Below, one piece after another: positions 33,994 to 58,122 of a stretch of DNA of 64,000 bases; position 1 is the stretch's first letter, and every line of letters begins with the position of its first letter. Origin of the DNA: Halanaerobium hydrogeniformans. GTDB taxonomy: Bacteria > Bacillota > Halanaerobiia > Halanaerobiales > Halanaerobiaceae. The stretch covers positions 1,612,001 to 1,676,000 of the forward strand of contig NC_014654.1 of NCBI RefSeq assembly GCF_000166415.1, read 5' to 3'. Made by a program: the position numbers and the translations under genes. The notes beneath the pieces are model-generated. The model was not told the DNA's origin. It saw only the letters and a program-made list of their open reading frames with translations, and made no database searches.

Positions 33994-34001
33994 ATAAAAA
34001 G

Positions 34002-34091
34002 TGGTGCCGGGGGTCGGGCTCGAACCGACACGGGGAATAAATTCCCACCGGATTTTAAGTCCGATGCGTCTGCCAATTCCGCCACCCCGGC
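34002..34091 (-). tRNA. tRNA-Leu (UAA)
   Basis: Acceptor GCCGGGG/CCCCGGC with encoded CCA, anticodon loop containing TTAAAAT (anticodon TAA), long class II variable arm, and T-loop GGTTCGAGCCC. It is 90 bases long. A second copy at 34197-34285 differs by one missing G in the variable arm. Confidence 0.95.
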
Positions 34092-34111
34092 AAATTATAT
34101 CTGATTTAAAA

Positions 34112-34188
34112 TGGTGTTGGTAAGTGGATTCGAACCACTGGCCTCTACGATGTCAACGTAGCGCTCTGACCAACTGAGCTATACCAAC
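34112..34188 (-). tRNA. tRNA-Val (GAC)
   Basis: Acceptor GTTGGTA with encoded CCA, anticodon stem CTACG/CGTAG around TTGACAT (anticodon GAC). 77 bases. It lies between the two tRNA-Leu copies. Confidence 0.94.
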
Positions 34189-34196
34189 TTAAAAAG

Positions 34197-34285
34197 TGGT
34201 GCCGGGGGTCGGGCTCGAACCGACACGGGAATAAATTCCCACCGGATTTTAAGTCCGATGCGTCTGCCAATTCCGCCACCCCGGC
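34197..34285 (-). tRNA. tRNA-Leu (UAA), second copy
   Basis: Identical to the copy at 34002 except for one base fewer in the variable arm (89 versus 90 bases). Anticodon TAA, CCA encoded. First gene of its transcript, behind the promoter at 34338. Confidence 0.95.
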
Positions 34286-34337
34286 ACAAAACTTTAATAA
34301 GTATTTTTAAGCTTATTTTTATCTTGCGACATTTTGT

Positions 34338-35150: not shown

Positions 35151-36014
35151 TTAATCTACAAACTCTAATTCAATACTGTCATTTTCTCTTAAATAATTCA
35201 GTATCTCTGTTGCTAAGACAGGGCTAATATCTGTTTCGACTGAATTATATGTATTAACAACCGTATTATATAAATCCCTTACATTAAAGAGAAAATTATT
35301 ACCTCTAATTCTTTCTACTACTGCATTTATAACCTGTCTCTGTCTCTGCAGGCGAGTATCATTATCTAAGTCCTTCCAGCGTACAAAGTTTAAGGCTTCT
35401 TTACCAGATAAAAGATTATTACCGGCCCTTAAATTTAAACCCAGGCCTGGGACTCTCAGCTGCTCATCCAAAGTTATCTGTACTCCTCCGAGCTCATCAA
35501 TTACTTTTTCAAAACCGGGAAAATTTAAATAAAGATAATAATCAAAGTCCCTGGACTTTGCCTGAGCTACTTTAGTGTTTAATTCTCTAAAATCAAAATC
35601 TTTTAAAGCTCTATTTTGATATTCCATAGTCTCATCAACTGTCTCGATAATAATTACTTCCTGTTCAGGTCTAATTTTAACTATCATAATTGAGTTAGCT
35701 TCAACCTCATCAAGTTCTTTATCATCTGTATCATCTAAACCAACAAATAATATATCTAATTCCTGTTCAAAAGTAGTATCATTTAAATTCATCAAACCCA
35801 ACAGTCTGTCAATTAAACCTGGATCTTCTTGAAGTTGATCTCCCCCAACAATTAAATCATCATCTACAGGTTCTATTCCTCTTTCGAGATAATAACCTGT
35901 ATAAGCAATAAATAAAATAAGCAGAGCTATTAAAGCAATCCCCAACCATTTGTATTTATTATTTTCTTTTTGATTTTCTTCTTTTTGATTATTTTCTGGA
36001 TTTTTTTCTGCCAA
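35151..36014 (-). CDS. LytR-CpsA-Psr (LCP) family protein
   Basis: LCP enzymes attach anionic glycopolymers from lipid carriers to peptidoglycan. This 287-residue protein has a charged cytoplasmic tail, one membrane span ('WLGIALIALLILFIAYTGYYL'), and an extracytoplasmic LCP domain with 'LDILFVGLDD', 'ANSIMIVKI', and the arginine-rich 'LSGKEALNFVRWKDLDNDTRLQRQRQVI' that binds the lipid pyrophosphate. TTG at 36014 is taken as start because GGGAGG lies 9 bases upstream; the ATG 84 bases further out has no ribosome site. No cell wall polymer genes are nearby. Confidence 0.85.
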   Translation of the reverse strand: MAEKNPENNQKEENQKENNKYKWLGIALIALLILFIAYTGYYLERGIEPVDDDLIVGGDQLQEDPGLIDRLLGLMNLNDTTFEQELDILFVGLDDTDDKELDEVEANSIMIVKIRPEQEVIIIETVDETMEYQNRALKDFDFRELNTKVAQAKSRDFDYYLYLNFPGFEKVIDELGGVQITLDEQLRVPGLGLNLRAGNNLLSGKEALNFVRWKDLDNDTRLQRQRQVINAVVERIRGNNFLFNVRDLYNTVVNTYNSVETDISPVLATEILNYLRENDSIELEFVD

Positions 36015-36174
36015 TGTAATTGACCTCCCTATTAATGAACTCTTGTCTCTATAAATTATATTCGTGATTATTAGCTTAATTCCTGCATATTTGGGCATTC
36101 TTAATGATTTTATCTACTTTCGATATCTTTAGACAAATTTTTAAAATTAATCAACAGGAAATTTCCAATTTCTA

Positions 36175-36305: not shown

Positions 36306-36327
36306 TTTTAATTTAATAAGTTAATTT

Positions 36328-36371
36328 CCCCCAAGTTTACCCTGGTAGTGCAGGTTTCTTGGGGGTTTTTT
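36328..36371 (+). terminator. Intrinsic terminator of tRNA-Leu, copy 1 of a repeated terminator
   Basis: CCCCCAAG pairs with CTTGGGGG, enclosing a CCTG/CAGG inner hairpin, followed by six T. The same element with one base change recurs at 54461-54503. Confidence 0.92.
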
Positions 36372-36408
36372 GTTTCTAATGTAATTGATCTTTTAAAATA
36401 AATCACTA

Positions 36409-37411: not shown

Positions 37412-38134
37412 TTAGCTACTTTCTTCTCTAGCATTATTCGCTTTAAAATCAGTGCTAAACTCATCTATTTCTAATTCTATATTATCTATCTTTTTATGCT
37501 TAGAGTACTTAGCTATCAAATCATATAACATTTTAACATCTATCCCTTTGATTTGTAGATAAGCAGTGATTTTTAAAACATCATCTTGAATAAAATTACT
37601 GGATATATGCTTTATATTTCCACCACTCTCTTTAGCTATTTTTTCTAAACAAGACGTCCCTTCTCTTAAATCAGAATCATTAAATATAATAGTAATTTTA
37701 CATTCAGAATCTCTAAAATTATTATGTTTACCAACAAATTTTTCCTGGAAATAACGCAAGCCAAGATGAGAAATGAGTACAACAAGAGCACCTATAATAG
37801 CTTCTTTCAAATATCCAGCTCCCGCTAATACTCCTGTAGCTGCACTGCACCATAATGTAGCAGCGGTATTTAAGCCACTAATGCTAAATCCTTTTTTTAT
37901 TATAACACCTCCACCAAGAAAACCAATCCCAGAAACTATTGAAGCCCCAACTCTAGTCGGACTACTTTCTTCTGGAAACATCATTGAAAATAGAACATAT
38001 AGTGCTGCTCCCAAAGCAACTAAAGTATTTGTTCTAATTCCAGCCATTCTTTTGCGCCATTCTCTTTCGACACCAATAATAACTCCAGCCATCAAAGCTA
38101 CCAAAAGCCTTATAACAAATTCCCAAATTTCCAT
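37412..38134 (-). CDS. mgtC: MgtC/SapB family magnesium-related membrane protein
   Basis: A 240-residue protein with an N-terminal membrane domain of about five helices carrying the MgtC signature: 'GVIIGVEREWRKRMAGIRTNTLVALGAALY' and 'VGASIVSGIGFLGGGVIIK', then 'GLNTAATLWCSAATGVLAGAG'. A C-terminal ACT-like cytoplasmic domain follows (about 145-230). MgtC proteins support growth in low magnesium and modulate ATP synthase or ion transport in pathogens. The M-box riboswitch and terminator directly upstream show magnesium control. A GGAGG ribosome site precedes the ATG. Confidence 0.92.
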   Translation of the reverse strand: MEIWEFVIRLLVALMAGVIIGVEREWRKRMAGIRTNTLVALGAALYVLFSMMFPEESSPTRVGASIVSGIGFLGGGVIIKKGFSISGLNTAATLWCSAATGVLAGAGYLKEAIIGALVVLISHLGLRYFQEKFVGKHNNFRDSECKITIIFNDSDLREGTSCLEKIAKESGGNIKHISSNFIQDDVLKITAYLQIKGIDVKMLYDLIAKYSKHKKIDNIELEIDEFSTDFKANNAREESS

Positions 38135-38275: not shown

Positions 38276-38440
38276 GCACCCAACTCCTCGTCTAAGCTTT
38301 AGCACTGTATGACATAGACTATATTAGTCAGCTATCTTAGATAGGCCTTAATTCGGTCTGCTATCTGTTCTACCCATTGGTGTCTCTGGACATTTCTGGG
38401 CAATAGCTTATCTCCATACAGGAGCCTCACTCAACAATTG
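38276..38440 (-). promoter_or_regulatory. M-box (ykoK) magnesium riboswitch
   Basis: The minus strand carries the conserved blocks in order: GTGAGGCTCCT, CTATTGCCCAGAAATGTCCA, GAGACACCAATGGGT, GTGCTAAAGCTTAG and GAGTTGGGTGC. These match the M-box aptamer consensus closely. With high magnesium the downstream terminator should form and mgtC be off. Confidence 0.94.
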
Positions 38441-38463
38441 GATATATAAATTTTCTATTCTAT

Positions 38464-38550: not shown

Positions 38551-39381
38551 TCAATACATCCTTCTATACAGTAACTGGATATTTCGATCCAGCAGAATAT
38601 TAATATTTTCCATATCTTCTGATCCTTCACTATAGTCAAGATGGTTTCCCTCAAAATTAATAAAATCACCCTGACCTAATCCTTCATTTTCAACTAAAGG
38701 TGAGATATCAGAAACATTATTATAGCCAAAAGATAAAATTTCTAAAGCAGCAATTTCTGCTAAAGGTGAAATATCTTCTACCTGATTATGAACAAAAAAT
38801 AATTCTTTTAAATTATCTAATTTAATTAAAGGTGAAATATCTTTAATTTGATTCCGATCTAAAATTAGTCTTTCTAAATCTTTTAACTTAGCAATTTCAC
38901 TAATGTTGGTTAACTGGTTATTACTTAAATTTATGCTCTTTAAATTACTTAATTCTTTCAATGGAGAAATATCATTAATTCTATTATCTCCTAAAGTTAA
39001 GACTTCTAATTTATCTAATTCAGCAAGTGGGGTTATATCTGCTATATTATTGCTTTGTATATTTAATTCTTTTAAATCTTCTAATTCAACTAAAGGTGAT
39101 AAATCTTCTATCTGGTTTTGACTTAAAATTAGCGTTTCTAATGCTACCAAATTGTCTATTCCTTCTAATGATTCTATTCCTTTGCTTACAGCATGCAGTT
39201 CTTTAATATCTTTAATTTCATCTTGATAAATTGCACCTGATGATTTATCTATGTTTTCTCTAACTGCCGCTTCTAAATTAGGATCTTCAAATTCAGCTTC
39301 TTCTCCCCTCATAATTCCACATCCTGAAACTAATAAAACTATTGATAAGCAAGCAATTAAAAACAATAATTTTTTCCTCAT
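38551..39381 (-). CDS. Leucine-rich-repeat lipoprotein, copy 1
   Basis: A 276-residue lipoprotein: signal peptide ending in lipobox VSGC (Cys 21), an N-terminal cap with 'FEDPNLEAAVRENI' as in internalin-like proteins, then about eight 21-22 residue LRRs of the form 'L..L..L.L..N.I.DISPL.' (about 70-240), and a C-terminal cap ending 'LLYRRMY'. It should sit on the outer face of the membrane and bind a protein or polymer. It is 20 bases downstream of a YibE/F gene. The near-copy at 47678 is identical in the first 130 residues but for one change, and has about 30 changes in the central repeats. Confidence 0.85.
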   Translation of the reverse strand: MRKKLLFLIACLSIVLLVSGCGIMRGEEAEFEDPNLEAAVRENIDKSSGAIYQDEIKDIKELHAVSKGIESLEGIDNLVALETLILSQNQIEDLSPLVELEDLKELNIQSNNIADITPLAELDKLEVLTLGDNRINDISPLKELSNLKSINLSNNQLTNISEIAKLKDLERLILDRNQIKDISPLIKLDNLKELFFVHNQVEDISPLAEIAALEILSFGYNNVSDISPLVENEGLGQGDFINFEGNHLDYSEGSEDMENINILLDRNIQLLYRRMY

Positions 39382-39401
39382 TTTCTCACCTTCTTTTGAG
39401 T

Positions 39402-40583
39402 TTAATCTTCTTTTTTAGAAAAAAAGTAATCTTTAATGCCAAATAAAGAGAAATCTGTCTCTATACTATAAATCCAGGCTGCAAAAATGGTAGTAATTGG
39501 TGCTACTAAAACTATGCCTATACTGCCAGTTAATATTCTTAATATCTCTGATACAATCAATCTCAAATTCATTATTCTGACAAAACTTGCTTCTCTAGTC
39601 ATAAAGGCCATAAATAAAGTCATATAACTACCGATATATGCTAATAGTAAAGTGGTTGTCATTGTCCCGATTACCGCACTTCCAACATTAAAGCCCGATT
39701 TTGCTAATTCGAAAAAGCTAATATCCGGTTTTCTTAACTTGATTTCTTTTATAGTTGCAGCCATATCCATCGCTATATCCATTGCTGCCCCAGAAGCACC
39801 TATAACTACAGTAGCAAAAAATATATCTCTTATATTTAAATGCATATAACCAGCAAATAATACCTCTCCTACATAAGGAACAGAAAGACCATCTAAGGCT
39901 AAACGATTACCAAAAAAAACTACTACTCCAATGGTAATAAACAAACTGCTGACTGTCCCAACAAAAGCTGAAATACCTTTTTTGGTAAAACCGGCAATTG
40001 AAAAAACAATTAAGGCAGATAAAATTACCAAAACGAAACCAGAAAAATATAAAGGGTTTAAGCCATCTAACAAACCTGGAATTAGTAAATTCCAGATTAT
40101 ATATACACTTCCTGCAAAAGAAATTAAGGCTCTTAAGCCAGTATAACCAGCATATAATAATAACAATAACATAAAAAAAGCCATTAATATAAACGTCCAA
40201 TTTTGCCTATAAACATCTAGAGCTATTGCTCCTGCTATTTGACCCTCAGCAGTTTCAAAAAGGCCTACTATAATTTCTTCACCTTCGCTGAAACTATAAT
40301 CCCAGGCTAAACTACCTACTAACTGATTAGTGGCTCTAATTTGTTGACCTTGAAATTTTCCATCTTTTAATTCTACTTCAACAAATTGATTACCAAATCT
40401 AGTGATTCCGCTTCCCTGTACATCTCTATCATCTGTTTCTAAAACGACCCCTCTAGCTTCTCGACTAAATTCTTCATCACCAGGTCGATGGAAATAAAAA
40501 CCGGCTAATATAGCAATTAAGATTAACCCAATAATTAATGATATCATTCTCTCTTTATTTAAAAGCAGCTTTTTGCTCATCAA
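39402..40583 (-). CDS. YibE/F family membrane protein, copy 1
   Basis: A 393-residue integral membrane protein. One N-terminal span (about 13-30) is followed by an extracytoplasmic beta-rich region (about 35-125, 'RFGNQFVEVELKDGKFQGQQI') and then about seven spans typical of YibE/F proteins. Conserved features include 'YAGYTGLRALISFAGSVYIIWNLLIPGLLDGLNP', 'GASGAAMDIAMDMAATIKEI' and 'FNVGSAVIGTMTTTLLLAYIGSYMTL'. Function is unknown; some members sit near transport or signalling genes. It lies between an alkaline phosphatase gene and an LRR lipoprotein gene in both copies of a duplicated block. A GGAGG-type site precedes the ATG. Confidence 0.85.
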   Translation of the reverse strand: MMSKKLLLNKERMISLIIGLILIAILAGFYFHRPGDEEFSREARGVVLETDDRDVQGSGITRFGNQFVEVELKDGKFQGQQIRATNQLVGSLAWDYSFSEGEEIIVGLFETAEGQIAGAIALDVYRQNWTFILMAFFMLLLLLYAGYTGLRALISFAGSVYIIWNLLIPGLLDGLNPLYFSGFVLVILSALIVFSIAGFTKKGISAFVGTVSSLFITIGVVVFFGNRLALDGLSVPYVGEVLFAGYMHLNIRDIFFATVVIGASGAAMDIAMDMAATIKEIKLRKPDISFFELAKSGFNVGSAVIGTMTTTLLLAYIGSYMTLFMAFMTREASFVRIMNLRLIVSEILRILTGSIGIVLVAPITTIFAAWIYSIETDFSLFGIKDYFFSKKED

Positions 40584-40745
40584 ACCCCTCCAATATTAGC
40601 AGTTATATGTATTGTGAACCTCTCCACCTAAATCAAAACCAAGATTTAGAGGGAGCTTCTAACTGCTTCATATAGATTAAAGTTCAACCTATATTACTAG
40701 GTCAGTTTACAAGATGTTTGGCTTTTAAGTTTTGCTCCTAATAGC

Positions 40746-42063
40746 TTAGGATACCCTTAATCTTGAAGGATTGTCCACAAATCCATTATCTCTCGCCTCT
40801 TTGATAGGTCTGAGAATACATTTATCGTTATGGTATTTACGAAGTATATTAAAACTACCATTCTGATCAGCATTAATTAATAGGCCCTCGTTAGTTTTAA
40901 AGAGACCTCTAGTAATTCTTCTGGATTTATCATAGTTACTTTTATTTATTTTTTCCAGATCTACTGAACTACATCCAGAAGTATAGCTTTCATCAATTCC
41001 AACAACTTTGATACCTTTTAGTTTAGCTTTGTATTCAATTAATTTTTTTAATCTCTGGATCGGTATTTGGACAAAAGATTTAAGTTTGCTGCATTGTTTA
41101 ATATTTTTTATATCTCCAATTACAATAGTTTCTACTTGATTTTCAATTGCTAAATCAACTATTTTGCAGCTAGCTTTATGGAGATAATCTCTAATATAAT
41201 TTCTTCTCTTTAATCTCAGATATTTTATTCGTTTAGTATCTCTAATTTTACTGGTAGCTAACTGCCTCATTCTAATGCTTTGTAGTCTGGCAATTTCTTT
41301 ATTAAAATAAGAATTTTTGGATTTAATAGTTTTACCATTGATAATATAACAATCAGAATTGTTTTTAAATGTTAAAGTAGCCAAATTATCAAGACCTAGA
41401 TCTACTGCCATTATGTTAGATTTCTTATTTTCTTTTGCCTCTTTAACTTTGTAGATGATTAGTAGATACCATCTTTTAGAAATACGGTCCTGCTTAATCT
41501 TTATCTGCTGGACAGCATCTAAATCTATAATGCTTTGAACTGCTTCAGGCAGCTCAAAATTAAGAAGGCCAAATCGAATACGGTCATACTAAAGCTTTCC
41601 TTGCGTATTATAAATTAAAAGCTTTAGTGACCTTCACATTATATTTAGATTGTATCTTTTTAGATAAGGATAAGAGTAATTTATTATCTTTAATTCTAAC
41701 AGCCAGATTGGTAAAAATTATTTCACAGGGATTACTGTTCATATGTTTAAAATTCGGTGACCCTGGCTGACCTTTATATTTTTGAGGATTCTTTTTATAA
41801 TCTTTGAGAGAATTAAAAAAACTTTTCCAGTCCTTAGCTAACTGCTTTAATGCCTGCTGTCTGTTATGGGAGTGAAGGTAGTCATTATGCCAGTTATTTT
41901 TATATCTAGTTTCTAATTCAGTATAGACAGCTTTTACATCTTTATTATTTTTAATCTGATAATTGACTGTATTATATAATTTAGAGCAATGCCAGGCTAA
42001 TTCATTAATTATTACTAATTGCTTATGGCTTAATTTAGGCTTGAATTTAAATGATAATCGCAT
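40746..42063 (-). pseudogene. tnpB: tnpB (IS605 OrfB), frameshifted
   Basis: The N-terminal part (41608-42063, 'RLSFKFKPKLSHKQLVIINE') ends at a TAA. The C-terminal part, open from about 41588 in another frame, holds the RuvC-like pieces 'MAVDLGLDNLATLTF', 'ETIVIGDIKNIKQ' and 'INADQNGSFNIL'. A frameshift and stops separate the two, so full-length TnpB is not made. The zinc ribbon is replaced by the 'CSSVDLEKINKSNYDKSRRI' variant seen in one branch of the family, so RNA-guided cleavage activity is doubtful even before the break. Confidence 0.88.
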
Positions 42064-42142
42064 TGATTTTTCACCTCCATCCTACTATAATTATATCATA
42101 CATATGTTTGCTTGTAAAAGAAAAAATGGAGGTTTGATCTTT

Positions 42143-42263
42143 ATGAATAGAGACTTAAATAACAATTATCATTCTGTTTATAGTCTACAATATCATTATT
42201 GTATCTTCTGGTGGTGCTACTATTGAGACAATTAAAAAGTATATTGAAAATCAGAATAAATAG
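42143..42263 (+). pseudogene. tnpA: tnpA (IS200-type Y1 transposase) remnant
   Basis: The frame begins 'MNRDLNNNYHSVYSLQYHYC', the start of a TnpA, and after an internal deletion the region ends 'SSGGATIETIKKYIENQNK', its usual C-terminus. The catalytic HUH and Tyr motifs are gone. Divergent from tnpB, as in IS605. Confidence 0.75.
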
Positions 42264-42325
42264 CCAATTTATCTCCACCCAATGCATAGCTTGGATGGAG
42301 TTTTCTTAGCAGTTTTAGATAAAAT

Positions 42326-44539: not shown

Positions 44540-45821
44540 AATTCAAAATCAATTTTTAAAAGGTGAATTGCAACATGCAATGCACGCTTTTTTAATCTTT
44601 CTTAAAATCACCTGTACCTTCATTACTTCTAGACACTAAAGCTTAATTTCTCTTTAAATAATTTATCTGAGTTTTCATAGTTAAACATTTTTCTAGGATA
44701 AGTATTTATAAAATCCTGAATCTTTTTTATCAGTTTTCTCTTAATACCTTTAAAACTTGTGCCTTTAGGTAAAAATCTTCTGATAAACTTATTAGCTACT
44801 TCATTTGATCCCCTTTGCCAGCTACAGTATGCATCACAATAATACAAACTAGTTCTAGGTATACTGCTACCTGTATATGATTGTTCTATACCTTCATAAT
44901 CTGCAAATTCTGAACCGTTGTCTGTAGTAATCGATTTAAATGTTTCCCTAAAATTAACAACCCCAAATCGTCTTTCTATACGATCAAGTCCTTTTACCAC
45001 TGACTTTGCTTTTTTGTTTGGTATTTTTTCTATGATTTCCTGCCTAGTTTGTCTTTCTGTCAGCACTAGTAAGGCAGGTTCATCTTTTTGTTTTAACCCT
45101 TCTACTAAGTCCATCTCCCAATGCCCAAATTCCTCCCTGGTATCAGCTCCTTCAGGCCTATCTCTAATTGTACGACCTTCCTTACGCCTCGTAGTGCTTT
45201 CACTTTCTTTTGGTCTGTCTTTCCCAGTTTTATAATTACCATGTGGGAGATCGCTTCTGTCTATATTCAAAACACCTTTATCTATGTAATTATAGATTGT
45301 TTTCCAGTGTAATTGAATTTCAAATTTATCTGATTCTTCAATGTCTTTTGCCACTGCTGCAGGAGATCTTAATTCCTTGATTTTTTCTTCTATAAATTCT
45401 GCTAACTCTTTATTTTTATCGATTTTTAAATCAGGGCCTTTATTCGAATTATTAAATTCATATACTTTCTGTGCTATCTCTGGTACATATTCTTTTCTGG
45501 TTGTTCCATCACCATTATCAAGTTCTACCTCACCTTTTTTTATTTCTCGACTGATTGTTGTTCTATGGCAGTTTAATTCTTCGCCTATTTCAGTATAATT
45601 TTTTTCTTGGACATTATATAAATGTTTAATTAATTTGCGATCATCAAAATTCAGGTGTTTTCCTTTGCTTCGTTTTGTGTTACAATTACTTTGACACATA
45701 TTCTGTACCTCCTAATGTTTTTGTCGCTATTAACATTATACAAAAGGTACAGGTATGTGTCTATTTTTTTATCTAATCACCGCGTGCATTTAATTATACA
45801 ATTCAAAATCAATTTTTAAAA
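44540..45821. mobile_element. IS30-family insertion sequence with 22-bp direct repeats
   Basis: One transposase gene is bounded by an exact 22-bp direct repeat (AATTCAAAAT...TTTTTAAAA at 44540-44561 and 45800-45821). Inside each copy the ends share AATGCACGC in opposite orientation. The repeat looks like a target duplication. IS30 elements usually duplicate 2-3 bp, but IS1630 of Mycoplasma makes duplications of about this length. Confidence 0.8.
44629..45699 (-). CDS. IS30 family transposase
   Basis: A 356-residue DDE transposase. The N-terminal HTH is 'LNFDDRKLIKHLYNVQEKNYTEIGEELNCHRTTISREIKKG', and the catalytic core has the first Asp in 'FGHWEMDLVEG', the second in 'SITTDNGSEFADYEG', and Glu in 'WQRGSNEVANKFIRRF'. 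The family's HWE.D and K-GS-NEN-N-like patterns are conserved and the frame is intact, so it is likely active. It is transcribed on the minus strand from its own ribosome site. Confidence 0.92.
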   Translation of the reverse strand: MCQSNCNTKRSKGKHLNFDDRKLIKHLYNVQEKNYTEIGEELNCHRTTISREIKKGEVELDNGDGTTRKEYVPEIAQKVYEFNNSNKGPDLKIDKNKELAEFIEEKIKELRSPAAVAKDIEESDKFEIQLHWKTIYNYIDKGVLNIDRSDLPHGNYKTGKDRPKESESTTRRKEGRTIRDRPEGADTREEFGHWEMDLVEGLKQKDEPALLVLTERQTRQEIIEKIPNKKAKSVVKGLDRIERRFGVVNFRETFKSITTDNGSEFADYEGIEQSYTGSSIPRTSLYYCDAYCSWQRGSNEVANKFIRRFLPKGTSFKGIKRKLIKKIQDFINTYPRKMFNYENSDKLFKEKLSFSV

Positions 45822-46073: not shown

Positions 46074-46138
46074 CCCCCTAACAGAATTGGAGAAAAAGTT
46101 TGAAAGTGATATACTCTAATTACAAGGGGGAAACACCA

Positions 46139-46450
46139 ATGGCAAACAGAAAATATTCCGATGAAACTAAAGAACAAATTGTAAAAGAATGTCGCGAAAT
46201 AGGTAACACAGCTCTTGTAGCAAGACGACATAATATTTCTAAGCATACTGTTTACAGCTGGGTCAAAAAAGCTAAAGAAACAGGATCAGTTAGATCTCTT
46301 CCTAAAGATGAAAAAAAGCAAATGAAAGAGATAGAAAATAGATTAAGTAAAATGAGCGATGAAAATGATAAGCTCAAAAAAATTGTAGCAGAAAAAGAAT
46401 TAGAATTAGCGATTTTAAGGGAGTTGAGAGATAAAGTAAACCCCCGATAG
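46139..46450 (+). CDS. IS3 family transposase OrfA
   Basis: OrfA of the IS3 element, DNA-binding subunit: HTH 'NTALVARRHNISKHTVYSWVKKAKE' followed by a leucine-zipper-like coiled coil ('EIENRLSKMSDENDKLKKIVAEKELELAI'). An ATG at 46139 follows AAGGGGG, so it is taken as start; the frame is open further upstream. Near its end the heptamer A-AAC-CCC (46438-46444) fits a -1 slippery site leading into orfB. Confidence 0.85.
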   Translation: MANRKYSDETKEQIVKECREIGNTALVARRHNISKHTVYSWVKKAKETGSVRSLPKDEKKQMKEIENRLSKMSDENDKLKKIVAEKELELAILRELRDKVNPR

Positions 46451-47406
46451 CCCTCAAAGTTCAGATTGCATCAAAGTGGATAAATAAAGGGTATAAAATC
46501 TCTATTGTTTTAGACTTTGTTGGGCTTAATTCTTCCACTTACTACAGTAATATAAATAGAAAAACTGAGAGTGAAAGTACTAATAGCAGCAATTCCAATA
46601 ATCCTCAAGGAAGACCTGTCCCTGGGTATTCTCTAACTGAATCAGGTGAAAAAATATCTGATGAACAGATTAAAGAATGGCTCTTAGAACTGGTTGCAGG
46701 AGATGGCTTCCCTTATGGTTACAGGAAACTTACAGTCTGTTTAAAAGAAGACTATAACTTGAAAATAAATAAGAAAAAAGTATACAGGTTATGCAAAGAA
46801 CTGGATATATTAAGATCGCAAAGAAAAATCAAAAAATTTAGACCTAAAAAGATTGCAAAACAGGAAGAAATTACAGAACCAAATCAACTCTGGCAGATGG
46901 ATTTAAAATACGGCTACATAAATGGAACAGATCAGTTCTTTTTCCAGATGTCAGTAATTGATGTCTTTTATAAGACTGTTATAGATTATCACCTGGGACT
47001 AAGCTGTAAAGCTAAAGATACCTGCAGGGTATTAAAGGCTGCTTTAAATAAAAGAAAGCTGTATAAAGGCATGAATTTGCCTAAAATTAGAACAGATAAT
47101 GGACCACAATTTGTCTCTAAATTATTTGGAGACACCTGTGAAAAACTGGGGGTAGAGCATCAGAGAATTCCAGTTAGAACACCTAATATGAATGCTCATA
47201 TAGAATCATTTCATTCGGTTTTAGAAAAAGATTGTTATTCAATTAATGAATTCAGTAGTTTTATTGACGCCTATAAAAAAGTCAGTGAGTATATGAATTA
47301 TTATAACAACAGATACCGTCATGGCAGTCTTAATGATATGCCTCCAGCAAAATTTTATAAACTGGCTAAAGCAGAAAAAATAGTTGCTGAACCAGTACTC
47401 GCCTAA
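46435..47406 (+). CDS. IS3 family transposase OrfB (expressed by -1 frameshift)
   Basis: The catalytic half of the IS3 transposase, open from 46435 in the -1 frame relative to OrfA and without its own good start. It contains 'WLLELVAGDGFPYGYRKLTV', the HTH_21-like region, and the DDE core: first Asp in 'LWQMDLKYGY', second in 'KIRTDNGPQF', and Glu in 'NAHIESFHSVLEKD'. The tail 'YMNYYNNRYRHGSLNDMPPAKFY' is typical of OrfB. The reading frame is intact, so an OrfAB fusion made by frameshifting is likely functional. Confidence 0.88.
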   Translation, partial: SKPPIALKVQIASKWINKGYKISIVLDFVGLNSSTYYSNINRKTESESTNSSNSNNPQGRPVPGYSLTESGEKISDEQIKEWLLELVAGDGFPYGYRKLTVCLKEDYNLKINKKKVYRLCKELDILRSQRKIKKFRPKKIAKQEEITEPNQLWQMDLKYGYINGTDQFFFQMSVIDVFYKTVIDYHLGLSCKAKDTCRVLKAALNKRKLYKGMNLPKIRTDNGPQFVSKLFGDTCEKLGVEHQRIPVRTPNMNAHIESFHSVLEKDCYSINEFSSFIDAYKKVSEYMNYYNNRYRHGSLNDMPPAKFYKLAKAEKIVAEPVLA

Positions 47407-47556: not shown

Positions 47557-47646
47557 GTGAACCTCTCCACCTAAATCAAAGATTTGCATCAAAAGAGATG
47601 CTAGCTTCTCGTCGGATGGAGTTTTCTTGGCAGTTTTAGATAAAAT
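47557..47646. mobile_element. Miniature IS605-derived element
   Basis: A 90-bp sequence has the same left end (GTGAACCTCTCCACCTAAAT) and right end (GGATGGAGTTTTCTTGGCAG, then TTTTAGATAAAAT) as the IS605 element at 40614, but no genes. A GCATC/GATGC hairpin lies inside. It is probably an internally deleted derivative that was mobilised by TnpA in trans. Confidence 0.75.
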
Positions 47647-47677: not shown

Positions 47678-48508
47678 TCAATACATTCTTCTATAAATTA
47701 ACTGGATATTTCGATCCAGCAGAATATTAATATTTTCCATATCTTCTGATCCTTCACTATAGTCAAGTTTGTTTTCCTCAAAATTAATAAAATCACCCTG
47801 GCCTAATCCTTCATTTTCAACTAAAGGTGAGATATCAGAAACATTATTATAGCCAAATGTTAAAGATTCTAAATTAGTAATTTCTGCTAAAGGTGAAATG
47901 TCTTCTACCTGATTATGAACAAAGTATAGTTCTGTTAAATTATTTAGCTGTGCTAAGGACGATATATCTTCAATTTCATTCCTGTCTAAAACAAGTCTTT
48001 CCAGATCATTCAGTTCAGCAATTTCAGTTATATCACTTAAGTGATTATTACTTAAATTTAAACTCTTTAAATTACTTACTTCTCCCAATGGATTGATATC
48101 AGTAAGATTATTATTTTCTAAATTTAGAACTTCTAATTTATCTAATTCAGCAAGTGGAGTTATGTCTGCTATATTATTTCTTTGTATATTTAATTCTTTT
48201 AAATCTTCTAATTCAACTAAAGGTGATAAATCTTCTATCTGGTTTTGACTTAAAATTAGCGTTTCTAATGCTACCAAATTGTCTATTCCTTCTAATGATT
48301 CTATTCCTTTGCTTACAGCATGCAGTTCTTTAATATCTTTAATTTCATCTTGATAAATTGCACCTGATGATTTATCTATGTTTTCTCTAACTGCTGCTTC
48401 TAAATTAGGATCTTCAAATTCAGCTTCTTCTCCCCTCATAATTCCACATCCTGAAACTAATAAAACTATTGATAAGCAAGCAATTAAAAACAACAATTTT
48501 TTCCTCAT
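47678..48508 (-). CDS. Leucine-rich-repeat lipoprotein, copy 2
   Basis: Same length (276 residues), signal peptide, lipobox and architecture as the copy at 38551. Residues 1-131 differ at one position (SNN to RNN) and the last 60 at three. The four or so central repeats (about 132-225) differ at about 30 positions, mostly at exposed non-Leu sites, while the LRR framework residues are kept. The two proteins therefore probably bind different ligands through the same scaffold. It is 20 bases downstream of YibE/F copy 2, and a strong terminator follows. Confidence 0.85.
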   Translation of the reverse strand: MRKKLLFLIACLSIVLLVSGCGIMRGEEAEFEDPNLEAAVRENIDKSSGAIYQDEIKDIKELHAVSKGIESLEGIDNLVALETLILSQNQIEDLSPLVELEDLKELNIQRNNIADITPLAELDKLEVLNLENNNLTDINPLGEVSNLKSLNLSNNHLSDITEIAELNDLERLVLDRNEIEDISSLAQLNNLTELYFVHNQVEDISPLAEITNLESLTFGYNNVSDISPLVENEGLGQGDFINFEENKLDYSEGSEDMENINILLDRNIQLIYRRMY

Positions 48509-48528
48509 TTTCTCACCTTCTTTTGAGT

Positions 48529-49707
48529 TTAATCTTCTTTTTTAGAAAAAAAGTAATCTTTAATGCCAAATAAAGAGAAATCTGTCTCTATACTATAAAT
48601 CCAGGCTGCAAAAATGGTAGTAATTGGTGCTACTAAAACTATGCCTATACTGCCAGTTAAAGTTCTTAATATCTCTGATACAATCAATCTCAAATTCATT
48701 ATTCTGACAAAACTTGCTTCTCTAGTCATAAAGGCCATAAATAAAGTCATATAACTACCGATATATGCTAATAGTAAAGTGGTTGTCATTGTCCCGATTA
48801 CCGCACTTCCAACATTAAAGCCCGATTTTGCTAATTCGAAAAAGCTAATATCCGGTTTTCTTAACTTGATTTCTTCTATAGTTGCAGCCATATCCATCGC
48901 TATATCCATTGCTGCTCCAGAAGCACCTATAACTACAGTAGCAAAAAATATATCTCTTATATTTAAATGCATATAACCAGCAAATAATACTTCTCCTACA
49001 TAAGGAACAGACATACCATCTAAAGCTAATCGATTACCAAAAAAAACTACTATTCCAATGGTTATAATGAGACTACTGACTGTTCCAACAAAAGCTGAAA
49101 TGCCTTTTTTGGTAAACCCGGCAATTGAAAAAACAATTAAAGCAGATAAAATTACTAAAACGAAACCAGAAAAATATAAAGGGTTTAAGCCATCTAGCAA
49201 ACCCGGGATTAGTAAATTCCAAATTATATATACACTTCCTGCAAAAGAAATTAAAGCTCTTAAACCAGTATAACCGGCATATAATAATAAAAGTAATACA
49301 AAAAAAGCAACTAATATAAAAGTCCAATTTTGTCTATAAACATCTAGAGCAATCGCTCCTTCAAGTTCACCCTCAGGAGTTTCAAAAAGGCCCACAACAA
49401 TTTCTTCACCTTCGCTGAAACTATAATCCCAGGCTAAACTACCTACTAACTGATTAGTGGCTCTTATTTGTTGACCTTGAAATTTACCTTCTTTTAATTC
49501 TACTTCAACAAATTGATTACCAAATCTAGTGATTCCGCTTCCTTGAACATCTCTATCATCTGTTTCTAAAACCACCCCTCTAGCTTCTCGACTAAATTCT
49601 TCATCACCAGGCTGATGGAAATAAAAGCCGGCAAATATAGCAATTAAGATTAACCCAATAATTAATGATATCATTCTCTCTTTATTTAGAAGTAACTTTT
49701 TGCTCAT
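48529..49707 (-). CDS. YibE/F family membrane protein, copy 2
   Basis: A 392-residue near-copy of the protein encoded at 39402, with the same N-terminal span, beta-rich extracytoplasmic region and multi-span YibE/F core. Differences are few and concentrated in the extracytoplasmic segment (for example 'ETPEGELEGAIAL' instead of 'ETAEGQIAGAIAL'). In this copy the gap to the phosphatase gene is intact and contains a terminator but no insertion. Function is unknown. Confidence 0.85.
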   Translation of the reverse strand: MSKKLLLNKERMISLIIGLILIAIFAGFYFHQPGDEEFSREARGVVLETDDRDVQGSGITRFGNQFVEVELKEGKFQGQQIRATNQLVGSLAWDYSFSEGEEIVVGLFETPEGELEGAIALDVYRQNWTFILVAFFVLLLLLYAGYTGLRALISFAGSVYIIWNLLIPGLLDGLNPLYFSGFVLVILSALIVFSIAGFTKKGISAFVGTVSSLIITIGIVVFFGNRLALDGMSVPYVGEVLFAGYMHLNIRDIFFATVVIGASGAAMDIAMDMAATIEEIKLRKPDISFFELAKSGFNVGSAVIGTMTTTLLLAYIGSYMTLFMAFMTREASFVRIMNLRLIVSEILRTLTGSIGIVLVAPITTIFAAWIYSIETDFSLFGIKDYFFSKKED

Positions 49708-54439: not shown

Positions 54440-54460
54440 CTGCATAAGCTATATGAATTT

Positions 54461-54503
54461 CCCCCAAGTTTAGCCTGGTAGTGCAGGTTTCTTGGGGGTT
54501 TTT
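54461..54503 (+). terminator. Intrinsic terminator, copy 2 of the repeated terminator
   Basis: CCCCCAAG/CTTGGGGG stem with the inner CCTG-GTAGTG-CAGG hairpin and five T. It matches the terminator at 36328 with one substitution over about 45 bases, although the preceding genes are unrelated. Confidence 0.92.
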
Positions 54504-54591
54504 GTTGTTTTATATTCTGTATAAATTGCAGCTTGCTGCATTAAATTGCAAAATCATACTTTCACTGAATGAATAGTTTGATTTTCACGTG

Positions 54592-57500
54592 GTTTCAATC
54601 CTTATTTTAATGGATTAGTCATTGGAGCTTTCAATCTGTAAAGTATAATGTAACTAGGACTTAAGTTTCAATCCTTATTTTAATGGATTAGTCATTGGAG
54701 CCCTGGCCCGGCTCTACTATTTGCTCTAGTTTACGAAAGTTTCAATCCTTATTTTAATGGATTAGTCATTGGAGCCTAAAGATTTTAGCAGCTATGCAAA
54801 TACAGATTACAGTTTCAATCCTTATTTTAATGGATTAGTCATTGGAGCCCAAAATATCTTTTTGCGTTCTCGGCGTTTTTTTCGTTTCAATCCTTATTTT
54901 AATGGATTAGTCATTGGAGCCCTTGAGAGTTTTCGAATTGACTTATCTGGTCTTTAAGTTTCAATCCTTATTTTAATGGATTAGTCATTGGAGCTCATCA
55001 TCTTGATCCTGATCGTCCATCTCATCCAGATGTTTCAATCCTTATTTTAATGGATTAGTCATTGGAGCGAATAACGATGAAGAGCAGACTGATCTCGATC
55101 CGATGTTTCAATCCTTATTTTAATGGATTAGTCATTGGAGCAAGTTCTCCATTTACATCTGGGAAATATCCATTTTGTTTCAATCCTTATTTTAATGGAT
55201 TAGTCATTGGAGCTTTTTGTAGGATTTTATAATGCAATTGGGAAATTTCGGTTTCAATCCTTATTTTAATGGATTAGTCATTGGAGCCTATAACTTCTCG
55301 CTGGATAGTTCTACCTAATTCCTGTTTCAATCCTTATTTTAATGGATTAGTCATTGGAGCTGTTTTATAACACTTGTCAAAATATTTAAGTTATTTGTTT
55401 CAATCCTTATTTTAATGGATTAGTCATTGGAGCATGATGGACAATTAAAAAAAACTTTTGAATCCTTGTTTCAATCCTTATTTTAATGGATTAGTCATTG
55501 GAGCCCATTCGTAGTTGTTTTCTATGATAGGAGTATCACACGTTTCAATCCTTATTTTAATGGATTAGTCATTGGAGCTTATCCATAGACACATAGCCCT
55601 CATATGCACCAAGTTTCAATCCTTATTTTAATGGATTAGTCATTGGAGCAGGGTTTATATCGTGGCGAGAGCTACTCAGATATGTCGTTTCAATCCTTAT
55701 TTTAATGGATTAGTCATTGGAGCTAATATACAGACACCTTTTGCTATGTTAACAAAATAGTTTCAATCCTTATTTTAATGGATTAGTCATTGGAGCAAGC
55801 TAGATGTAGGCAGGGTTTTATACTTTAATGCATGTTTCAATCCTTATTTTAATGGATTAGTCATTGGAGCAATTAAGCAGTAAAGCATGGAATTCACTTT
55901 ATATGTGGTTTCAATCCTTATTTTAATGGATTAGTCATTGGAGCATTGCCATCTGTTATTCCTCCTATATATTCAATATTTGTTTCAATCCTTATTTTAA
56001 TGGATTAGTCATTGGAGCTTAGTTGAAAATTCTTATGCAGCTTCACCTATATGTTTCAATCCTTATTTTAATGGATTAGTCATTGGAGCAAGATGTTTTA
56101 ATTGAGAAAGGACAAATGCTAGAAAGTTTCAATCCTTATTTTAATGGATTAGTCATTGGAGCCTACTTGACCTTTTTTCATAACTTAACCACCTCCTGTT
56201 TCAATCCTTATTTTAATGGATTAGTCATTGGAGCTAACAAACATAAGAGGGATAAGGATAATTATGCTCCGTTTCAATCCTTATTTTAATGGATTAGTCA
56301 TTGGAGCAAGATAGCTGAAAGCCGAAAGCGTCTACGAGAACAGTTTCAATCCTTATTTTAATGGATTAGTCATTGGAGCTCGCAACAAAGTCAGCCCAAA
56401 CCACCAACAACCAAGTTTCAATCCTTATTTTAATGGATTAGTCATTGGAGCTACTAACCACTCATCGCCGCCATTAACCTGATTGAGTTTCAATCCTTAT
56501 TTTAATGGATTAGTCATTGGAGCTCATCAAGTGGTTTGGCTTGTTGTGTAGCAGCGAAGTTTCAATCCTTATTTTAATGGATTAGTCATTGGAGCTTTCT
56601 TTCATCTGGCATCATTTAATCTCCCTTCATGTTTCAATCCTTATTTTAATGGATTAGTCATTGGAGCAAGCCATGTGCTTATCCAGGATGCCCTAAATTA
56701 ATGTTTCAATCCTTATTTTAATGGATTAGTCATTGGAGCCTAAGATTGGATATTGATGACGAAGAAATGCTAATGTTTCAATCCTTATTTTAATGGATTA
56801 GTCATTGGAGCTACCTCCCAGTCTTCTGGAAGGCTCATTATATAAGCGTTTCAATCCTTATTTTAATGGATTAGTCATTGGAGCCAATGCAACAACTTCT
56901 CATCCATCTTATGTTGTGCGTTTCAATCCTTATTTTAATGGATTAGTCATTGGAGCATATTCCAAGAAATTAAGAGGATAACAGGAAAGGGGGTTTCAAT
57001 CCTTATTTTAATGGATTAGTCATTGGAGCTACTTTACCTACTTTGTTGTACTTTTTAAGCTCCTGGTTTCAATCCTTATTTTAATGGATTAGTCATTGGA
57101 GCAGTGAGCCTCTCCGTCTTCCCCGACCTTGATAGCTTGTTTCAATCCTTATTTTAATGGATTAGTCATTGGAGCAATGGTAGCTGCTTTTATTGATGAT
57201 AACAAGCCTGAGTTTCAATCCTTATTTTAATGGATTAGTCATTGGAGCCCTATCAGGTTCGCCTTGTTGATACCCTGGTTGCCAGTTTCAATCCTTATTT
57301 TAATGGATTAGTCATTGGAGCTCAGTTTCCCAAACTAACCTCGTTACTCCTCCAGCCAGTTTCAATCCTTATTTTAATGGATTAGTCATTGGAGCAATTA
57401 ATTATGAAAAAGAATGGTGTTATTTATTTAAGTTTCAATCCTTATTTTAATGGATTAGTCATTGGAGCTGATTCAGCATCGCCACGAAGCAATCCTTCAA

Positions 57501-58122
57501 CAAGTTTCAATCCTTATTTTAATGGATTAGTCATTGGAGCTAAGGTGGTGAAGGATTGATGAGATTTAAGTCTTTAAGTTTCAATCCTTATTTTAATGGA
57601 TTAGTCATTGGAGCTTTAATAATTCATTTTCAATTTTTCTTTTTAACTTGTTTCAATCCTTATTTTAATGGATTAGTCATTGGAGCAGAGTGCTAATAAC
57701 GGAGGAACTGTTGAGCTTACATGTTTCAATCCTTATTTTAATGGATTAGTCATTGGAGCCAAGCTCGTCCCTATTATCATCAAAACCACCTCTGAGTTTC
57801 AATCCTTATTTTAATGGATTAGTCATTGGAGCTAATAGGGAGTCTTGTGTAGTCAAATACTTTTGAAAGTTTCAATCCTTATTTTAATGGATTAGTCATT
57901 GGAGCAGCGAGCCGGCTAACTCATCTATTACTACAGGCAAGTTTCAATCCTTATTTTAATGGATTAGTCATTGGAGCCAGATATGATGGCCTGGGCTATA
58001 CTACACAGGATATGTTTCAATCCTTATTTTAATGGATTAGTCATTGGAGCCACGATTATAACTGCAGAGATCGCAATGGCAATCTGTTTCAATCCTTATT
58101 TTAATGGATTAGTCATTGGAGC
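54592..58122 (-). CRISPR. CRISPR array, 49 repeats of 37 bp, type I-B
   Basis: The repeat on the plus strand starts GTTTCAATCCTTATTTTAAT and ends GGATTAGTCATTGGAGC (37 bp). I counted 49 repeat starts from 54592 to 58086, giving 48 spacers of about 34-38 bp. All repeats look identical, including the outermost ones. Read on the minus strand each repeat ends in ATTGAAAC, the usual 8-base crRNA 5' handle of type I-B. The array is therefore transcribed leftward, away from cas6, and the newest spacers are next to 58122. Confidence 0.98.

What the first reader, a model, noticed from the sequence alone, without database searches (positions are those of the whole stretch)
47678..48508. Mosaic divergence of the two LRR lipoproteins: identical ends, diversified centre
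Residues 1-131 differ once and the last 60 differ three times, but about 30 of the 95 central LRR residues differ, chiefly at exposed positions, with framework Leu/Asn/Ile kept. A uniform mutation rate would not give this. It looks like repeat-cassette exchange, or diversifying selection combined with gene conversion of the flanks, reminiscent of variable LRR receptors.
Basis: seen in the sequence. Interest (0 to 1): 0.62.

Follow-up and report, generated by a model that had tools for sequence, protein, structure and literature searches.

The report
Patchy gene conversion between duplicated operons
Two neighbouring copies of a three-gene operon in the salt-loving bacterium Halanaerobium hydrogeniformans have copied stretches onto each other unevenly, so the two leucine-rich-repeat lipoproteins have near-identical ends and an old, diverged middle: an ordinary recombination mosaic, with no sign of a variable-receptor system.

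Summary
The two minus-strand LRR lipoproteins (A 38551-39381, B 47678-48508) are identical over residues 1-109, differ at 29 of 89 residues over 129-217, and differ at 3 of the last 59. Synonymous changes follow the same pattern: A-B dS is 0.03, then 0.63, then 0.08. dN/dS in the centre is 0.25, so selection there is purifying and I see no sign of diversification. The genes sit in a duplicated operon, alkaline phosphatase - YibE/F - LRR lipoprotein. The near-identical tract ignores gene borders: it runs from codon 242 of the upstream yibE/F gene through LRR codon 109 (about 0.8 kb). The rest of the block is intermediate (dS 0.27), and the LRR centre is as deep as the divergence from the single-copy orthologue of Halanaerobium polyolivorans. 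No donor cassette was found in the genome, and B's repeats match the same-numbered repeats of A and the orthologue, so cassette shuffling is not supported. Best explanation: an older duplication patchily homogenised by non-allelic gene conversion, leaving the LRR centre as an unconverted island. Import of B's centre from a diverged relative remains a live rival. Interest is low.

The parts
47678..48508 (-). LRR lipoprotein, copy B (276 aa)
   Evidence: Pfam LRR_4/LRR_8
47858..48181 (-). diverged centre of copy B (codons 110-217): A-B dS 0.63, dN 0.154
38551..39381 (-). LRR lipoprotein, copy A (276 aa)
38731..39054 (-). diverged centre of copy A (codons 110-217)
48182..48984 (-). near-identical (converted) tract in copy B: yibE/F codon 242 to LRR codon 109, dS 0.025
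   Evidence: HMM segmentation; coordinates
39055..39857 (-). the same near-identical tract in copy A
48529..49707 (-). YibE/F-like membrane protein, copy B
   Evidence: PF07907
39402..40583 (-). YibE/F-like membrane protein, copy A
   Evidence: PF07907
49838..51421 (-). alkaline phosphatase, copy B
   Evidence: PF00245
42401..43993 (-). alkaline phosphatase, copy A
   Evidence: PF00245
40614..42325 (-). IS200/IS605-type element with tnpB split into two ORFs, between the phosphatase and yibE/F of copy A
47557..47646 (.). ends-only IS605 remnant, 31 bp beyond the stop codon of LRR copy B; copies A and B lose homology 4 bp beyond the stop codon

Best explanation
A three-gene operon (alkaline phosphatase, YibE/F membrane protein, LRR surface lipoprotein) was duplicated in tandem. 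RecA-type homologous recombination between the two copies, about 9 kb apart in the same orientation, has since copied tracts from one to the other. The last tract covers the 3' part of yibE/F and the 5' 40% of the LRR gene. Other parts were homogenised earlier or less often, and the LRR centre (codons about 110-217) escaped and keeps an older divergence. Both proteins stay under purifying selection as internalin-like LRR solenoids anchored as lipoproteins. Shown: duplication, mosaic synonymous divergence, tract crossing the gene boundary, purifying selection. Inferred: the conversion mechanism, its direction and timing, and the protein's envelope role.
For: The block is collinear over PhoA-YibE/F-LRR, and a single syntenic copy exists in H. 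polyolivorans. A-B dS is 0.025 (yibE/F 242 to LRR 109), 0.270 (rest of phoA and yibE/F) and 0.735 (LRR 127-217); the pairwise Fisher P values are 2.7e-4 (centre vs mid), 2.5e-14 (centre vs converted) and 4e-11 (mid vs converted). Divergence from the orthologue is normal in the converted tract (0.61), so the low A-B value there reflects homogenisation and not a slow mutation rate. Identical runs of 215, 213 and 166 bp were found against a mean longest run of 80 under uniform differences, 0 of 5000 simulations. PhoA plus YibE/F without the LRR gene also depart from uniform (P 0.015 for variance). dN/dS in the centre is 0.25.
Against: B's centre is the longer branch: 36 differing sites match the orthologue in A against 18 in B (P 0.02), and A-B dS there (0.735) is nominally above A-G (0.473), though the intervals overlap. 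That leans towards import into B. An HMM with two states is barely better than one by BIC (856.2 vs 856.9), and three states are worse. No second strain of the species was available to catch a conversion event.
Confidence: 0.68

Rival explanations
1. Import: the duplication is fairly recent (dS about 0.27), and the centre of the LRR gene in copy B was replaced by homologous recombination with DNA of a diverged relative.
For: B's centre is the long branch (36 vs 18 sites, P 0.02); A-B dS in the centre significantly exceeds that of the rest of the block (P 2.7e-4).
Against: No donor was found in 12 genomes of the genus, 41 relatives, GTDB r220 genomes or viral contigs. The ends of phoA are also nominally deep (dS 0.62 and 0.54 in 40-codon windows), which would need several imports. 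The conversion tract is still required.
Confidence: 0.24
2. Diversifying (positive) selection on the exposed central repeats, with conversion of the flanks, as in variable LRR receptors.
For: Non-framework positions carry most replacements (27 of 30 in the repeats).
Against: Synonymous changes are concentrated in the same stretch; dN/dS is 0.25, upper bound 0.53; concave-face positions are not enriched (9/35 vs 18/63, P 0.82); framework sparing is equal against the orthologue. Residues 181-217 are conserved between A and the orthologue (32/37).
Confidence: 0.04
3. Repeat-cassette exchange within the gene or from silent cassettes elsewhere in the genome.
For: The gene is made of 66-bp repeats, which could recombine.
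Against: B repeats 3-5 are nearest to A and orthologue repeats of the same number. The genome holds only two LRR genes of this family by protein search, and the DNA search of B's centre gives A and then only short matches. No length change.
Confidence: 0.03

Closest known systems
Concerted evolution of bacterial paralogues by non-allelic gene conversion (from general knowledge)
   Same: Duplicated block in one replicon, tracts of near-zero synonymous divergence next to diverged tracts, boundaries that ignore gene borders
   Different: Only two copies, no population data, direction and number of events not resolved
Listeria class 1 internalins (InlA, InlB, InlH)
   Same: 22-residue LRR of the LxxLxLxxNxIxDIxPL type; InlA is among the best solved relatives, and NCBIfam internalin models match below their cut-offs
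   Different: Lipoprotein anchor instead of LPXTG or GW anchors (no such domains found), short, in a halophile not known to me as a pathogen, encoded in a phosphatase-YibE/F operon
Variable lymphocyte receptors of jawless vertebrates
   Same: LRR solenoid only
   Different: No donor cassettes, no assembly system seen, no excess replacement change

Membership tests
Gene-converted paralogue pair | Collinear duplicated block | tested here: met
   93% over 2062 bp and 91% over 1758 bp in the same order and strand
Gene-converted paralogue pair | Synonymous divergence significantly uneven, with tracts near zero | tested here: met
   dS 0.025 / 0.27 / 0.735 by segment
Gene-converted paralogue pair | Low A-B divergence not explained by local low mutation rate | tested here: met
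   A-G and B-G dS 0.61 in the converted tract
Gene-converted paralogue pair | Phylogeny of converted tract groups paralogues, unconverted tract does not | tested here: inconclusive
   Only one close outgroup; A-B dS in the centre equals or exceeds A-G, intervals overlap
Variable LRR receptor / cassette diversification system | Silent donor cassettes or further paralogues | tested here: not met
   Two copies only, no donor
Variable LRR receptor / cassette diversification system | Excess replacement change at the binding face | tested here: not met
   omega 0.25; concave face not enriched
Internalin family (class 1) | Scores above the curated NCBIfam cut-offs | tested here: not met
   118 bits against 1600 for InlA, 114 against 1050 for InlH
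Bacterial LRR lipoprotein | Lipobox followed by LRR solenoid | tested here: met
   LVSGC at residues 17-21; LRR_4 and LRR_8 above gathering scores

The most novel reading that the evidence does not exclude
The cell keeps two versions of a surface LRR protein because each is useful: selection rejects conversion of the central repeats (different ligands) while the anchor and C-terminal parts are homogenised, so the operon pair is a two-allele surface receptor system renewed by imported centres.
Probability: 0.08. Interest if true: 0.45.

Novelty: new member of a known kind. Interest (0 to 1): 0.2.

Why it matters
It is a clean example of how a peak of amino-acid difference between paralogues can come from recombination and not from selection: the synonymous sites and the neighbouring gene show it. 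For the organism, it documents a tandem PhoA-YibE/F-LRR duplication in an IS-rich genome with recent homogenisation. If the retained centre proved functional, it would be a small case of selection against gene conversion.

Tried and rejected
Diversifying selection: rejected by dN/dS and position classes. Internal repeat shuffling: rejected by unit-by-unit comparison. Donor elsewhere in the genome: none found. Donor in relatives, GTDB genomes or viral contigs: only the H. polyolivorans orthologue at 72% and distant LRR proteins. Uniform divergence across the block: rejected. Metagenome scan: cap of zero, not attempted. No structure was predicted; exposure was judged from the LRR register only. 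The literature searches found no paper on this duplication.

Full report
Where it is. The window lies in a 2,613,117-bp single-contig genome. Both genes are on the minus strand.

The observation. Copy A (38551-39381) and copy B (47678-48508) both encode 276-residue LRR lipoproteins. At nucleotide level 73 of 831 positions differ. Residues 1-109 are identical, 129-217 carry 29 replacements, and 218-276 carry three.

The key test. It is not. A-B dS is 0.031 over codons 1-109, 0.625 over 110-217 and 0.077 over 218-276. The permutation test on synonymous changes within the LRR gene gives 0 of 5000. Replacement and synonymous changes rise together: dN/dS in 127-217 is 0.25, bootstrap 0.09-0.53. The protein-level pattern is therefore a pattern of DNA divergence, with purifying selection throughout.

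The wider block. The LRR gene is the last of three duplicated genes: alkaline phosphatase, YibE/F and LRR. Copy A is split by an IS605-type element at 40614-42325, and transposase genes of IS30 type (44629-45699) and with HTH_Tnp_1 and rve integrase-core domains (46100-47406) lie between the copies. An ends-only IS605 remnant lies just beyond LRR-B. H. polyolivorans has the block once. The phosphatase-YibE/F pair is found together at seven further loci in the genus, including a third pair in this genome, but no LRR match appears in those loci.

Segments. An HMM on synonymous changes places a near-identical tract from yibE/F codon 242 to LRR codon 109, a short one in phoA (436-485), and a low state at LRR 225-276. 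Support by BIC is marginal, but direct comparisons are not: A-B dS is 0.025 in the long tract, 0.270 in the rest of phoA and yibE/F, and 0.735 in LRR 127-217, with Fisher P values of 2.7e-4 or lower between classes. The segments for these comparisons were chosen after seeing the data. In the long tract both copies are 0.61 from the orthologue, so the tract is not simply slow-evolving. That it crosses a gene boundary and follows no protein domain is what conversion predicts.

Which centre is odd. In LRR 127-217, 36 of the differing sites match the orthologue in A and 18 in B (P 0.02). dS values are A-G 0.47, A-B 0.74 and B-G 0.86, with overlapping bootstrap intervals. B's centre is the longer branch. 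This is compatible with an older duplication in which the centre was never converted, or with an import into B. With a single close outgroup I cannot separate the two; I prefer retained divergence because the ends of phoA are also nominally deep and no donor was found, but give import about one chance in four.

Selection and cassettes. In the seven repeats, framework positions changed 3/56, concave-face positions 9/35 and other positions 18/63; concave vs other P 0.82. The comparison with the orthologue has the same profile. B repeats 3, 4 and 5 are nearest to repeats 3, 4 and 5 of A and the orthologue. No further paralogue was found by protein search of the genome, and the DNA search of B's centre returned A and then only matches under 40 bp.

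Relatives. The best solved relatives are a chain labelled Rab family protein and internalin A; NCBIfam internalin models match far below their cut-offs. The protein is thus an internalin-like LRR lipoprotein by sequence resemblance, not an internalin by curated membership. Its role is inferred to be at the cell envelope, with the phosphatase and YibE/F.

Verdict. Ordinary biology, interest 0.2.

Noticed in passing
54592-58122: CRISPR array of about 49 repeats of 37 bp (Rfam CRISPR-DR7).
   Followed up: no
38276-38445: M-box (magnesium) riboswitch, minus strand, between LRR copy A and an MgtC-family gene (37412-38134).
   Followed up: no
33995-34286: Two 99% identical tRNA copies (97-98 bp) about 195 bp apart in a tRNA cluster.
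   Followed up: no
47557-47646: Ends-only IS605 remnant; a similar 93-bp one lies at genome 1,893,785-1,893,877. PMC7290912 describes only one ends-only element, at 843,418.
   Followed up: partly
36323-36374 and 54456-54506: A 52-bp repeat (96%) on both sides of the duplicated region; 54456-54525 also matches H. polyolivorans (L033 2437-2505). The LytR-family gene (35151-36098) lies on the other side of the operon there.
   Followed up: no
L041, L042, L043, L044, L045, L048, L050: Alkaline phosphatase and YibE/F are neighbours at seven further loci in the genus, a conserved pairing of unknown meaning; the LRR gene is added only in H. hydrogeniformans and H. polyolivorans among the genomes searched.
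   Followed up: partly
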